A stretch of 31,391 bases of DNA from a virus. The notes beneath the pieces were generated by a model. It saw only the letters and a program-made list of their open reading frames with translations, searched no databases and was not told where the DNA came from. Shown piece after piece: positions 668 through 13,441 of the stretch. Location of the stretch: the IMG/VR virus record IMGVR_UViG_3300044620_000987, positions 1-31,391 of that record. One strand, written 5' to 3'. Position 1 is the stretch's first letter. Each line of letters begins with the position of its first letter. Both the position numbers and the translations under genes were made by a program.

Positions 668-745
668 TAAACAACAAGGGTGAGCTTAGACATCGTCAGT
701 ATCGTCGATTCAGCTGAGATTAACGTCGAAGCCCCTTGTTGTTTT
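668..745 (+). terminator. long-stem terminator enclosing a 52-nt structured insert
   Basis: The arms 668-680 and 733-745 are perfectly complementary over 13 bp and run into a T tract. Instead of a short loop they enclose 52 nt containing further self-complementary words (AGCT...AGCT, TCGA...TCGA). This is either a terminator with an elaborate apical domain or a small structured RNA ending in one. The tRNA-Met begins five bases later. Confidence 0.6.
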
Positions 746-750
746 TACAT

Positions 751-822
751 TGTGCGGTAGAGCAGTGGTAGCTTGCTTGGCTCATAACCAAGAGGTCGGT
801 GGTTCGAATCCATCCCGCGCAA
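751..822 (+). tRNA. tRNA-Met (CAT)
   Basis: A complete cloverleaf can be drawn. The acceptor is TGTGCGG with CCGCGCA (one G-T pair), the D stem GAGC/GCTT, the anticodon arm CTTGG-CTCATAA-CCAAG with anticodon CAT, the variable loop AGGTC, and the T arm GGTGG-TTCGAAT-CCATC. CCA is not encoded. Elongator, initiator and tRNA-Ile2 (modified CAT) were not distinguished. It is the most canonical tRNA in the window together with the Leu gene at 5062. Confidence 0.88.
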
Positions 823-837
823 CAAATCATTTCTAAC

Positions 838-1050
838 ATGTTAAAACTACTAAAATTTATCGGAATGTTCCTTGCCACAGTTATTGCTATTGCAGTAATG
901 GTTTCAGGAACTATTGCAGTTTTCGCTTTTTTAAGCGGTAACGGGTTCTCAATTTTCTGCAACTCAATGCAGCATCCAGCACTTGTAATAGTGTCTGTAA
1001 TTGGTGCATTAGTTTGTACAGGTATTTATGTAGAAATGCATAAGCCATGA
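838..1050 (+). CDS. small two-pass membrane protein, 70 aa
   Basis: The ATG at 838 is preferred over an upstream GTG in the same frame at 799, because that extension would lie inside the tRNA-Met gene. Two hydrophobic helices are visible, residues about 5-32 and 45-65, joined by a short polar loop containing a cysteine. The stop overlaps the next start in an ATGA arrangement, so the two small membrane proteins are probably translated together. Holin-like roles are possible for such proteins but nothing in the sequence shows it. Confidence 0.6.
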   Translation: MLKLLKFIGMFLATVIAIAVMVSGTIAVFAFLSGNGFSIFCNSMQHPALVIVSVIGALVCTGIYVEMHKP

Positions 1051-1130
1051 AAATAGACGCAGACTTCGAAGAACTTGTGTCAGCCGTTGTAGTAATACTC
1101 CTCGTTGTAGGAGTATTGCTATTAGCGTGA
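1047..1130 (+). CDS. very small membrane protein, 27 aa
   Basis: It starts in the ATGA overlap with the preceding gene. The first ten residues are acidic (KIDADFEELV), followed by a single hydrophobic helix ending LLLA. The overlap and the clean acidic-then-membrane layout support it; the length alone would not. It is followed directly by the 1.1-kb non-coding block. Function unknown. Confidence 0.45.
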   Translation: MKIDADFEELVSAVVVILLVVGVLLLA

Positions 1131-1134
1131 TGCA

Positions 1135-2240
1135 AAGTATCGGCACTCTTCCTTTAACCGAGTGTCTATCCAGTAAGCTACTGGCGTACTAATAGACTAC
1201 AGTAATGTCTATTATCCGTGGGCGTATATGAAAGTATACGTAGTGGATACGGATGGGGAAAACTCATCCATAAGCATACTTGTCTACCTACAGGATTGTA
1301 AAATATCCACGGTGTATGCGTTAAGGAGCTTGCTCTGAACTAACAGACACGGCTGTTTATGGTCGTTAGGATAAAACCAGTAATGGTGATAAAGTGAACC
1401 ACTTTAACAGGGTGAGTTTGCGTTAGGGTAACCTAATCCATGTAAACATGCAGACAATCAACACAGAGGACTATCGTCTGAGTGTTGAATCCCTGCCAAG
1501 GGATTTGAGTGTGAAAGCACAATAAGGGTATCTGTAGGAATTGACTCAAGAGTTTTACCAAAAACTCAAGGGTTGAAACCATTGCAAGTGGTGCGGTCAC
1601 AGTGTCACAAAGCAACGTAGACTGGTAATCTACACTGGGGTGTACTATCTAAACTTCTCAAAAGGAAGCATGATAGAGGCATGGTTGCACATCCTGGGTC
1701 TTGGTATTGTTTACTTAAACAATTAAAAAATTAAGCAAAAGCCAACCATCTTTCTAGCTGAAAATAGCGTTATCCCTCTGTAATATGAGGGCACAGTAAA
1801 TCCCGCAAGGATGACAATGTGATGTAGAATGAGTAAATCTAAGGTGAGGAGGCATCCTCTTTAGTCCGCAAGACACTTGGTTGAAAAGGAAGCATATATA
1901 AGCTGGAAAGTACATGGTAGTTAGTCTACTCGCTATCTGATATACTTTGGAGTAATTCAAAGTGTGTGTAAGTGACTGAAAGGTTACAAAATTATCAGAG
2001 TAAAGGTCAACACTCAGCCCTTGTATTAATGCACCATAACTCACTTCCCAAGGGTGAGCAGTTGTAATAATGTATCTTGCAGACCTTCTACTAAAGAGGT
2101 AAGACCTCGTTGAGAGCTGATATATTATTACAACTGAGTGCAGAGGGGTAACATAACAGGACTTTAGCGATTGGACTTCATACAATCGTAGCTTTTTGGT
2201 GAGGCAAAACCATCGCCTTCGGGCGCTTAAATTGAAAATA
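1135..2240 (+). ncRNA. candidate giant structured RNA, about 1.1 kb
   Basis: There is no convincing reading frame on the plus strand for about 1.1 kb, but complementary arms are very dense. Examples: a perfect 11-bp stem 2061-2071 with 2124-2134; AATAGAC/GTCTATT near 1189; GGATG/CATCC near 1251; TCAACAC/GTGTTGA near 1457-1490; AATCCCT-gcca-AGGGATT near 1490; GAGTTTT-acca-AAAACTC near 1551; GTAGA/TCTAC near 1617; CCCTC/GAGGG near 1774; GAGGA/TCCTC near 1845; ACTTTG/CAAAGT near 1943. Several loops are GNRA-like (GTAA, GAAA). Size, ornate structure and placement beside phage tRNAs recall GOLLD and ROOL RNAs, but I did not recognise either consensus. The boundaries and the strand are inferred from the plus-strand genes on both sides. 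Confidence 0.6.
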
Positions 2241-2244
2241 AACC

Positions 2245-2382
2245 ATGAAAAAAATACTTACCATCGTTGCAGCTATTATGCTGCTGTCTTCATGCACTGT
2301 AAGACGTGGATTACCATGTCCGTGCATGCATTGTTCAACAAATTCTGCTGTTAATACAGCAGAGAAAGGAGTTAGGCCATGA
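2245..2382 (+). CDS. small lipoprotein, 45 aa
   Basis: The N-terminus is a textbook lipoprotein signal: MKK, a hydrophobic core and the lipobox LLSSC, with Cys at residue 17 as the predicted lipidated residue. The mature peptide of about 29 residues contains three more cysteines (PCPCMHC) and no recognised domain. Its stop overlaps the start of the membrane protein at 2379 by ATGA. A tiny lipoprotein coupled to a membrane protein could be a lysis (spanin or holin) or superinfection-exclusion pair, but this is a guess from context. Confidence 0.7.
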   Translation: MKKILTIVAAIMLLSSCTVRRGLPCPCMHCSTNSAVNTAEKGVRP

Positions 2383-2567
2383 ATGTGTTTATATTCAGGT
2401 CGTCAATCGTACTTATGGCCTTTTCACTAATAGTAATATTAGTGATTATGGGTGTAGGAGCTTGTGGTTATAATATATCACAAGCAGTTTCATTATTTTC
2501 AACTATGGTAGTAACATTTTTGCTATCTGTAGTTGGGTTAACATATTCAGTAGACAAACTTAAATAA
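2379..2567 (+). CDS. two-pass inner-membrane protein, 62 aa
   Basis: Two hydrophobic helices at residues about 7-29 and 35-55 are separated by a short GYNISQ loop, with a lysine-containing C-terminus. It starts in the ATGA overlap with the lipoprotein gene, suggesting the two act together at the host envelope. No family recognised. Confidence 0.6.
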   Translation: MNVFIFRSSIVLMAFSLIVILVIMGVGACGYNISQAVSLFSTMVVTFLLSVVGLTYSVDKLK

Positions 2568-7386: not shown

Positions 7387-7502
7387 AGTCAGGTGGGAAA
7401 TGGGAAACCCGCTACAGAAAATTGATTCCGTTTGGAGGCTGTGATTTATGCTGAGGATGATAAAAGTAGTAGAGGTTACAGGTTCGAATCCTGTCCTGAC
7501 TA
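7387..7502 (+). tRNA. second Leu-like tRNA gene with expanded middle
   Basis: Acceptor (AGTCAGG/CCTGACT) and T arm (ACAGG-TTCGAAT-CCTGT) are nearly identical to the element at 6778, and the D arm is related (GGG...CCC). Total length is 116 nt. The middle differs completely from its twin. One fold uses GCTAC (7411-7415) with GTAGT (7466-7470), closing a 50-nt loop; another uses TACAG with CTGTG, closing a 21-nt loop. Neither gives a 7-nt anticodon loop, so no anticodon is called. It is probably a duplicate of the 6778 gene whose central part has been replaced or expanded. Confidence 0.5.
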
Positions 7503-7516
7503 CAAATTAAATAACT

Positions 7517-7684: not shown

Positions 7685-8375
7685 AGGCTGGATGTTTGCC
7701 TTTGTCAATTATTAGAGGCCCAAGGTTAACCCCTATGGTAAGCGGTAATATTCACATAAAAAGCTGTAGTAATAAATAATAGGATGTGTGTACGTTGTGC
7801 GTTTTTCTCATGTCACAGTCCGAAAACGCTCTATTTATTACTACAGATTGTGTTGTTTCTCCTTGAGAAAGAGAAATTAAGTTCAAAGTATTAAGAGAGT
7901 AAAAACATGAAACTTACTCTACAACACAAACATCAATCTCATTTATCTAATTGTTTTGTAAAGATGAAAGTCCGTAGCATAAGTGACACATAACTATTGG
8001 AATGTCATTAAGTAGTACCCAATAATGCGTTACAAAACATTAGATAATATTCTATACCAAATACTGCTTGTTAAAGCGATTTACGCTACATAAAAATGTA
8101 GTATTGTCTAAAAATTGGTAGAAGAGTATAAAGTCATTGTGAAAATACTCATATACTCGTTTTTAACGCTGGAATGAAATATAACTTAAGTAACAATGAT
8201 AGGGGCAGCAAGTAGAAGAAGTTAGCTTAATGATATAGACGTATATCGGCTAAACAGTATTCATTGCCTTCAACATAGTAATATGTTGTCGTAGTTGTTA
8301 TGGTTCGAAATGATTTAAAAGGTAGTGACCTAACATAACAACATTGTGCGAATCAGGTGGTTCCTGATTGATACA
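7685..8375 (+). ncRNA. candidate large structured RNA, about 0.7 kb
   Basis: No gene fits, but long stems are striking. A perfect 15-bp stem 7764-7778 with 7832-7846 encloses a 7-bp stem GCGTTTT/AAAACGC (7799-7805 with 7823-7829). A 16-bp stem with one bulged T joins 7945-7961 to 8030-8045 and encloses TATTGG/CCAATA. Then come CTACAT-aaaa-ATGTAG, GAGTAT/ATACTC, and CAATGA...TCATTG enclosing TTAGC/GCTAA and GATATA-gacg-TATATC. A perfect 9-bp stem (8294-8302 with 8334-8342) and a 7-bp hairpin (8351-8357 with 8363-8369) close the block. This is too much perfect pairing for spacer DNA. A promoter for the next gene begins just downstream. Confidence 0.6.
8351..8373 (+). terminator. possible terminator hairpin of the structured RNA
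   Basis: AATCAGG-tggtt-CCTGATT makes a 7-bp hairpin at the 3' end of the block. The following sequence (GATACAAATTATT) lacks a strong T run, so it may be a 3' stability hairpin. Confidence 0.35.
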
Positions 8376-8416
8376 AATTATTAGTAAAATCCTTTTTTAT
8401 TATAGGTTTATTTTAT

Positions 8417-8424
8417 TATATTTG
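8417..8424 (+). promoter_or_regulatory. Bacteroidota-type promoter -7 box
   Basis: TATATTTG matches the Bacteroides housekeeping -7 consensus TAnnTTTG, 20 bases before the ATG at 8445. The upstream region is T-rich, but a clear -33 TTG was not seen. It would drive the recombination module. Confidence 0.55.
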
Positions 8425-8444
8425 CTATAAGAAAATTACATTTT

Positions 8445-10388: not shown

Positions 10389-10451
10389 AACCGCTCTGCA
10401 ACCACCGAACGGTCTGTTTCCAACAGACACGCTGATGTAGGTGGAGCGGGG
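10389..10451 (+). ncRNA. compact structured element before tRNA-Cys
   Basis: CCGCTC and CCACC on the left pair with GGTGG and GAGCGG on the right (around 10389-10449), with a five-base bulge. Inside is a perfect 7-bp hairpin GTCTGTT-tcc-AACAGAC. GC content is high for the window. There is no T tract, so it is a structured RNA element or processing hairpin more than a terminator. Confidence 0.45.
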
Positions 10452-10459
10452 CGGCACTT

Positions 10460-10531
10460 GGTGAGGTGGCGGAAATGGAACGCACCGGCCCGCAAAGCCG
10501 GTACATGGGGGTTCGACTCCCCCGCTCACCA
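10460..10531 (+). tRNA. tRNA-Cys (GCA), provisional
   Basis: The 72-nt cloverleaf has acceptor GGTGAGG/GCTCACC (innermost pair G-G mismatched), D stem GCG/CGC, anticodon arm CCGGC-CCGCAAA-GCCGG giving GCA, variable TACAT, and T arm GGGGG-TTCGACT-CCCCC. Position 33 is C instead of the near-universal T, and CCA is not encoded. The anticodon assignment is clear; function with C33 is less so. Confidence 0.7.
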
Positions 10532-10773
10532 CAAAAAAAGAAACCTGATTATGACAGCAAAAGAAAAACAGGAACAATTTCTGAAAGAAATCAAAGATGT
10601 ATTGAAGAAGTATAACGCAGAAATAAGTCTTGAAGATTTCGGTTACGGCTATTCACAAGACTTTAAAATTGTTATTGATTTTGACTTTGACGATTCTTTA
10701 GAAGATACTGGAATTGTTCCGCAAATAAAAATCGGCAGTTTTTTAGATGGTTGTTAAATTGACGCTCACCACG
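10523..10773 (+). repeat. direct repeat of the tRNA-Cys 3' end flanking a small gene
   Basis: CGCTCACCAC followed by an A run occurs at 10523-10532, inside the tRNA-Cys 3' end, and again after GA at about 10763-10772, six bases after the stop of the 10551 gene. The unit is about 240 bp. A repeat of a tRNA 3' end on both sides of a gene is what tRNA-targeted insertion or a tandem-duplication remnant leaves. At about ten bases it could also be chance. Confidence 0.3.
10551..10757 (+). CDS. small acidic hypothetical protein, 68 aa
   Basis: The ATG at 10551 is chosen because earlier in-frame starts lie inside the tRNA-Cys gene. The product has a lysine-rich helix (TAKEKQEQFLKEIKDVLKKY) followed by a strongly acidic beta region (KIVIDFDFDDSLED). 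A second copy of the tRNA-Cys 3' end (CGCTCACCAC) occurs just after its stop, so this gene is flanked by short direct repeats. Function unknown. Confidence 0.6.
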   Translation: MTAKEKQEQFLKEIKDVLKKYNAEISLEDFGYGYSQDFKIVIDFDFDDSLEDTGIVPQIKIGSFLDGC

Positions 10774-10870
10774 AAAAAACACATGGTACTTTCACTGAGA
10801 AGGTTAGTCGCTGGATTTCAGCAAAAAGCAGCTAGCCACGGCTGTAAAAAACTCTCCCATATGTACTAAA

Positions 10871-10941
10871 GGGCAGTTAGCTATAATGGTAAAGCCTGTG
10901 GTTTATCCCAGAGATGTGCGGTTCGACTCCCACACTGCCCT
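10871..10941 (+). tRNA. tRNA-like gene with irregular anticodon and T arms
   Basis: The acceptor GGGCAGT/ACTGCCC is perfect and the D arm is short (GCT/AGC). The anticodon helix CTGTG/CAGAG contains a G-G mismatch and leaves an 8-nt loop (GTTTATCC), from which TTA or TAT could be read. The T stem needs a bulged C (GTG-c-GG with CCCAC). Total length is 71 nt. The combination suggests a decaying or unusual tRNA; the amino acid is not assigned. Confidence 0.5.
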
Positions 10942-12535: not shown

Positions 12536-13441
12536 ATGATATTCAAACCAATAAAAATAGCAGCTGATGAAGCGTTAAAATTCATCATTGACAGACAAAG
12601 TGGTCAAGAACGACCACTTAAAACCAGATGGCCTAAACTTAACCGAACACTGTTAGGCGGTTTAAATTGGCATGAGGTAACTATGGTAGGCGGTATGTCA
12701 GGTTCGGGCAAAACTTTATTTGCGTCGCAATTAGAGTCTGACTTGTGCGAGCTTAATAAAGACCAAGATTTCGCTATATTGTCGTTTAATTTCGAGATGA
12801 TGGCACGTATGTTACTATTACGCAAACTATCATCGAAATCTAAACGGTCTATATCTGATTTGCTCTCTGTAGAAATACCACTATCTTCACAAGACATAGA
12901 CGAAGCTAAAAAGTACTTAGAAAGTCTCCACGATTATCCAATCTACTATTCAGAAACACCCGCTACTGTATCTGCAATGAAAAAGACTGTAGAGTTGTTT
13001 TACAAGCAGGTAAACAAACCATTTGTCTGTATAATTGACCACACTCTTTTAACTAGAAAAGGGTCAGGTCAAAATACTAATGACATGGTTGCTGATATAG
13101 CGGATTGGCTTATCGAAGACAAGAAAATCTACCCTGCACACTTTGTGCTGCTTAATCAACTTAATCGTAATATCGAGTCAGAAGAACGTATGCGTAAACC
13201 AAGTATCTTGAATTACCCAACGCGCTCTGATTTGTATTACGTAGAAGCCTTATATCACGCTTGTGATAATGTCATTATTAACCACAGACCTTACTTATTA
13301 AATCAAACTCAGTATGGACCAGATAAGATACCCGTAACTAAAGATACGCTTTTTAATCACTGCATTAAAGTTCGTAATGGTGAAACAGTAATTATTAAAT
13401 CAAGAATTGATGGTAAAACAATGACAATTTTCGAAGAATGA
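12536..13441 (+). CDS. DnaB-like replicative helicase (RecA-fold domain only)
   Basis: The 301-residue SF4 helicase has Walker A GGMSGSGKT at 52-60, a FNFEM block (84-88), Walker B FVCIIDH at 163-169, and motif H4-like LNQLNR at 206-211 followed by the charged YPTRSDLYYVEAL segment (227-239) typical of DnaB C-terminal domains. The DnaB N-terminal primase-interaction domain is absent; bacterial DnaB is about 450-470 residues. It unwinds DNA at the phage fork. The primase start overlaps its stop by four bases, so helicase and primase are made together. Confidence 0.85.
   Translation: MIFKPIKIAADEALKFIIDRQSGQERPLKTRWPKLNRTLLGGLNWHEVTMVGGMSGSGKTLFASQLESDLCELNKDQDFAILSFNFEMMARMLLLRKLSSKSKRSISDLLSVEIPLSSQDIDEAKKYLESLHDYPIYYSETPATVSAMKKTVELFYKQVNKPFVCIIDHTLLTRKGSGQNTNDMVADIADWLIEDKKIYPAHFVLLNQLNRNIESEERMRKPSILNYPTRSDLYYVEALYHACDNVIINHRPYLLNQTQYGPDKIPVTKDTLFNHCIKVRNGETVIIKSRIDGKTMTIFEE

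What the first reader, a model, noticed from the sequence alone, without database searches (positions are those of the whole stretch)
1135..2240. 1.1-kb ornate non-coding block, candidate giant phage RNA
Seen: no plausible plus-strand gene, but many perfect local and nested stems, including an 11-bp stem at 2061-2071/2124-2134 and several GNRA-like loops. Known: GOLLD and ROOL RNAs are very large structured RNAs of phages, often near tRNA genes. Inference: this is a member of such a class or a new one. Its placement between a tRNA/membrane-peptide cluster and a lipoprotein/AAA+ module is notable.
Basis: partly seen in the sequence, partly recalled or inferred. Interest (0 to 1): 0.8.

Follow-up and report, generated by a model that had tools for sequence, protein, structure and literature searches.

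The report
Mobile GOLLD RNA with new companion
The non-coding block is a real giant structured RNA of the GOLLD family (whose studied member builds a hollow 14-part RNA cage), carried by a crAss-like virus as a cassette that has jumped between distantly related viruses and that sits beside a second structured RNA element not found in the RNA family database.

Summary
Window 1271-2021 is a GOLLD RNA. Its 3' domain (1635-2020) matches the whole Rfam model RF02032 at E = 8.5e-37, but scores 133.7 bits against a curated cut-off of 150, so a standard scan misses it. Fifteen relatives show compensatory changes in 45 of 57 base pairs, and the 5' domain covaries too. The carrier is a crAss-like phage fragment (Crassvirales). 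The block is composite, however. A two-hairpin 5' element (1137-1186) precedes GOLLD, and a three-way junction with a pseudoknot (2027-2148) follows it. Neither neighbour has a significant Rfam 15 match. The junction occurs in more than 100 IMG/VR stretches, its helices and pseudoknot covary, and it was not found in 50,697 phage records. GOLLD moves as a unit: a 113-kb crAss-like record carries it at 96.3% identity over 753 nt with no other detectable DNA match to the window, while the two phages' helicases are 35% identical. A near relative (94-96% identical) has the same junction but no GOLLD. Cage formation is inferred from the published GOLLD structure and was not tested here. The functions of the cage and of the junction remain inferred.

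The parts
751..823 (+). tRNA-Met (CAT), upstream of the RNA block
   Evidence: ARAGORN and Rfam tRNA
1137..1166 (+). 5' element, hairpin A: 7-bp covarying stem with conserved loop UUYCUUUAACC
   Evidence: 35 distinct copies, stem positions 3-7 covary
1167..1186 (+). 5' element, hairpin B: UAUCCAGUAAGCUACUGGCG, nearly invariant
   Evidence: 68 viral stretches hold the pattern; contexts; stem
1271..1634 (+). GOLLD 5' domain (cap domain in the solved relative); GAAA hairpin at 1509-1520
   Evidence: 96.3% identical block in L220 starts at 1271; 45 of 61 consensus pairs with compensatory changes in 21 sequences
1635..2020 (+). GOLLD 3' domain, full Rfam RF02032 match; variable linker at about 1690-1737; terminal hairpin at about 2003-2022
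   Evidence: cmscan 133.7 bits, E = 8.5e-37, model 1-416 of 416; 45 of 57 pairs with compensatory changes
2027..2148 (+). Three-way-junction pseudoknot element: P1 2030-2034/2138-2142, P2 2040-2044/2054-2058, P3 2059-2071/2124-2136, pseudoknot 2046-2049/2145-2148
   Evidence: 120 distinct copies; covariation incl. pseudoknot; no Rfam family
2150..2245 (+). Leader between the junction and the small lipoprotein-like ORF at 2246; conserved in L002, role not tested
   Evidence: 90 of 90 nt identical to L002 5138-5227

Best explanation
The block is a composite RNA locus of a crAss-like phage with a GOLLD RNA at its centre. Shown: 1271-2021 is a GOLLD homologue with covarying 5' and 3' domains; it is flanked by a two-hairpin 5' element and a three-way-junction pseudoknot element; the GOLLD segment has been transferred between deeply diverged crAss-like phages as a unit of about 750 nt. 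Inferred from the solved relative: the transcript folds without protein, the 5' domains form the caps and the 3' domains the rings of a 14-mer cage, with the linker at about 1690-1737 inside. Inferred here, with lower confidence (about 0.35): the junction element is an independently folding leader or boundary structure that insulates or protects transcript ends and the message downstream, and exchange happens at the borders of RNA modules.
For: Full-length GOLLD match, E = 8.5e-37. Compensatory changes in 45 of 57 pairs of the 3' domain and in 45 of 61 consensus pairs of the 5' domain. L220, a 113-kb record, shares 1271-2022 at 96.3% identity and has no other DNA match to the window at E <= 1e-5, with helicases 35% identical. 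L002, 94-96% identical to the window downstream, lacks GOLLD but keeps the junction. Junction: 120 copies, 18 of 25 pairs changed on both sides against 7.0 in shuffles, pseudoknot covaries without selection for it. Crassvirales carrier.
Against: The score lies under the Rfam gathering cut-off (133.7 against 150). No expression data, no oligomerisation test, no RNA ends mapped. The 5' end of the GOLLD transcript is set only by homology to L220. Most GOLLD records here were found through the 5' element, so their association is partly ascertained; GOLLDs without that element exist. The function of the junction rests on position only.
Confidence: 0.9

Rival explanations
1. The whole block 1137-2240 is one RNA: a long GOLLD variant in which the 5' element and the junction are obligate GOLLD domains.
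For: Eighteen of 19 GOLLD records have the 5' element 445-735 nt upstream of the 3' domain, and about eight have the junction directly after the terminal hairpin.
Against: The junction and the 5' element mostly occur without GOLLD: in 32 of 38 linked copies they lie 65-284 nt apart. GOLLDs without either flank exist. L220 GOLLD is 96.3% identical with unrelated sequence outside 1271-2022.
Confidence: 0.1
2. The near identity of the window and L220 GOLLDs reflects strong conservation, not transfer.
For: GOLLD is under structural constraint.
Against: Other GOLLDs in these phages are much more diverged: mean column identity 58%, 85% for L145. 96.3% over 753 nt between phages with 35% identical helicases and no other DNA match is not explained by constraint.
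Confidence: 0.04
3. The junction element is a DNA-level site (recombination or packaging site) and not an RNA.
For: It is exchanged precisely between sibling phages and is present in several copies in some contigs.
Against: G-U pairs are used as standard pairs, copies within a contig lie on one strand, loop-to-tail pseudoknot pairs covary, and the element lies between same-strand genes, often just before an ORF.
Confidence: 0.15
4. The block encodes an antisense protein.
For: A 143-aa minus-strand ORF spans 1754-2185.
Against: L220, 96% identical over GOLLD, has no such ORF; the ORF runs across the GOLLD/junction border that differs between phages.
Confidence: 0.01

Closest known systems
GOLLD RNA (Rfam RF02032; env-38 cryo-EM structure, PMC12286853)
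   Same: Full-length 3' domain match; separate 5' domain; about 750 nt against 833 nt for env-38; downstream of a tRNA-Met as reported for env-38; phage-borne; GAAA hairpin in the 5' domain
   Different: Below the Rfam gathering score; no tRNA in the linker; fused at its 3' end to a junction element; lies in a crAss-like phage and shows recent transfer as a cassette
ROOL RNA (rumen-originating, ornate, large)
   Same: Large phage-borne ornate RNA that forms a cage
   Different: No ROOL match in the block at E <= 10
Flavivirus-type exonuclease-resistant RNAs (from general knowledge; analogy for the junction element only)
   Same: Compact three-way junction whose hairpin loop pairs with sequence just 3' of the junction
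   Different: No Rfam match; bacterial virus; conserved loop sequences differ; resistance untested

Membership tests
GOLLD RNA (RF02032) | Match to the Rfam covariance model | tested here: met
   Full model 1-416, E = 8.5e-37, 133.7 bits; note that the gathering score of 150 is not reached
GOLLD RNA (RF02032) | Rfam gathering score of 150 bits | tested here: not met
   133.7 bits. Relatives in the same alignment class reach 206-212 bits. This is a curation threshold, not a structural feature
GOLLD RNA (RF02032) | Conserved 3' domain secondary structure supported by covariation | tested here: met
   45 of 57 pairs with compensatory changes; 96.2% of cells paired against 73.5% in shuffles
GOLLD RNA (RF02032) | Less conserved structured 5' domain upstream of the 3' domain | tested here: met
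   1271-1634 conserved in 21 sequences, 45 of 61 pairs with compensatory changes
GOLLD RNA (RF02032) | Carried by phages or prophages, often near tRNA genes | tested here: met
   crAss-like phage; tRNA-Met at 751-823
GOLLD RNA (RF02032) | Symmetric kissing loops between chains (L21a, L21b) | tested here: inconclusive
   By position the hairpin GAGGA-GGCA-UCCUC matches L21a, and 13 of 15 sequences keep GC in that loop; the mapping to env-38 numbering is inferred
GOLLD RNA (RF02032) | Protein-free 14-mer cage | not testable with these tools
   Needs mass photometry or cryo-EM
ROOL RNA | Match to the Rfam model | tested here: not met
   No match at E <= 10 in window 1000-2400
Any Rfam 15 family, for the junction and the 5' element | Match to a model | tested here: not met
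   Window, L062 and L049 scanned permissively; only chance-level matches far below gathering scores

The most novel reading that the evidence does not exclude
Environmental crAss-like phages carry a modular structured-RNA system in which the GOLLD cage gene is one interchangeable cassette and the three-way-junction pseudoknot is a new RNA class with its own biochemical activity (nuclease resistance, self-cleavage or ligand sensing), so that some phages make cages tagged at the 3' end with this element.
Probability: 0.25. Interest if true: 0.85.

Novelty: new variant of a known kind. Interest (0 to 1): 0.62.

Why it matters
GOLLD forms one of the largest known RNA-only assemblies, and its function is unknown. 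Near-identical phages with and without the cassette, plus the same cassette in an unrelated phage, give natural comparisons for finding out what it does. The junction element is a widespread, strongly covarying RNA in no Rfam 15 family, which makes it a direct target for structure and function work.

Tried and rejected
Rfam at gathering thresholds missed GOLLD. BLAST of the block, and of the junction core, against 50,697 phage records gave nothing. The GOLLD search across a host phylum failed twice for technical reasons, so the host range was not examined. The alternative RNA-like block of L002 (4396-5009) has no homologue in held loci beyond its tRNA and one short stretch in L133. Protein coding on either strand was rejected. 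Folding energy was not used as proof, because coding controls score similarly. No held paper was found that links GOLLD with crAss-like phages.

Full report
Observation. Window 1135-2240 has no + strand ORF of 60 aa or more and folds better than shuffles (z = -4.5). The 11-bp stem at 2061-2071/2124-2134 is exact. Energy alone is weak evidence, because three coding controls in the same window score -0.8 to -5.9.

Identity. A permissive Rfam scan finds GOLLD over its full model at 1635-2020 with E = 8.5e-37 and 133.7 bits. The gathering cut-off of 150 bits hides it from a standard scan. GOLLD was then found in 18 further IMG/VR records, two of them over the cut-off. An alignment of 15 sequences of the 3' domain gives 57 pairs, 45 with compensatory changes; 96.2% of cells are paired against 73.5% in shuffles, and sliding the partners destroys the signal. 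The 5' domain, outside the Rfam model, is conserved in 21 sequences, with compensatory changes in 45 of 61 pairs. It includes a GAAA hairpin at 1509-1520; a conserved GAAA loop (L11a) is described in the 5' cap of the env-38 structure, and equating the two is inference.

Carrier. The DnaB-type helicase (12536-13441) has 33 matching records among annotated phages; the listed ones are crAss-like or unnamed faecal phages at about 37% identity, and the taxonomy lines read for two are Crassvirales. PolA also finds crAss-like phages among its best hits. The window is therefore most likely a fragment of an environmental crAss-like phage.

The block is composite. Segment 2027-2148 is a three-way junction. 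P1 is UGCAC/GUGCA, P2 is CUCAC/GUGAG, P3 is a stem whose tip varies in length, and the P2 loop UUCC[C/A] pairs with the tail [G/U]GG just 3' of P1. The exact core occurs in at least 119 viral stretches (capped). A structural scan found 120 distinct copies in 1.9 Mb of loci and none in a shuffle (the loci were collected by the motif). In a 32-sequence alignment 18 of 25 pairs change on both sides, against 7.0 in shuffles. In a scan that placed no demand on the pseudoknot, UCCC pairs with GGG, UCAC with GUG and UCCA with UGG. No Rfam family matches. It was not found in the annotated phage collection and hardly in bacterial and archaeal genomes (two MAG contigs). Thirteen loci hold two or three copies, always on one strand.

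The 5' element 1137-1186 consists of hairpin A, a covarying 7-bp stem with a conserved loop, and hairpin B, nearly invariant. In 38 of 69 copies a junction lies within about 1.1 kb downstream, in 32 of them only 65-284 nt away, too close for a GOLLD. In 18 of 19 GOLLD records the 5' element lies 445-735 nt upstream of the GOLLD 3' domain. That set was found mostly through the 5' element. A search by the GOLLD terminal hairpin also gave GOLLDs without it, such as L210, L211, L218, L219 and L222.

Mobility. L220, a locus of a 113-kb record with a crAss-like helicase, shares 1271-2022 with the window at 96.3% identity over 753 nt. No other DNA match at E <= 1e-5 exists between the window and that record, and the helicases are 35% identical. 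In the opposite comparison, L002 matches the window at 94-96% downstream of GOLLD and at 100% over 670-745 upstream, but lacks the window's tRNA-Met, 5' element and GOLLD; it has a different block of about 0.6 kb with an embedded tRNA-Arg. Homology resumes at 2021, the end of GOLLD. L002 also carries a compensated change in the junction's P2 (CUCAC/GUGAG to CUCUA/UAGAG). Sibling phages L157 and L179 (98.5% identical) differ at precisely the junction element, which in L157 is replaced by a shorter sequence that can form the same loop-to-tail pairing. The recombination mechanism is not known; use of shared RNA modules as joints is an inference.

Function. For GOLLD the best model is the published protein-free 14-mer cage. 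A Lactobacillus brevis prophage GOLLD was reported to accumulate during lytic infection and to be dispensable for phage production (PMC7567579). Nothing here tests cage formation. The junction often follows a hairpin and precedes an ORF (median 138 nt to the next ORF of 60 aa or more), so a leader or boundary role that protects or insulates transcripts is the working idea, held at about 0.35.

Novelty. The GOLLD is a new, sub-threshold member of a known family. The junction element appears undescribed, within the limits of Rfam 15 and an open-access literature search. The cassette behaviour is the new point about GOLLD; a horizontal origin had been suggested in the held literature for a mycobacterial tRNA cluster that includes GOLLD (PMC6582537).

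Noticed in passing
window 670-745: Strong terminator-like structured hairpin, 100% identical to L002 4320-4395, upstream of tRNA-Met; left border of the segment that differs between the window and L002.
   Followed up: partly
window 7387-7504: tRNA-like ends (tagtcagg ... ggttcgaatcc ... cctgacta) around an interior longer than usual; not called by ARAGORN, while L002 has a tRNA match at the corresponding place.
   Followed up: no
window 7690-8444: Second ORF-poor block of about 750 nt that folds better than shuffles (z about -3) and is about 86% identical in L002; no Rfam match at gathering scores.
   Followed up: no
window 10390-10941: Rfam DUF3800-VIII RNA match at 10390-10455 directly before tRNA-Cys (10460) and a weaker tRNA match at 10871-10941.
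   Followed up: no
L002 4396-5009: Alternative RNA-like block of about 0.6 kb with an embedded tRNA-Arg in the place of tRNA-Met plus GOLLD; no homologue found beyond its tRNA and a short stretch.
   Followed up: partly
L006 1850-2065 and the GOLLD 3' flank of L195: The P2 loop of the junction element appears to carry an insert beginning CTCACGTRGATATAAAGACTT.
   Followed up: no
L157 and L179, 3' flank of GOLLD: Sibling phages differ by exact replacement of the junction element with a minimal version that can still form the pseudoknot, about 30 nt before a start codon.
   Followed up: yes
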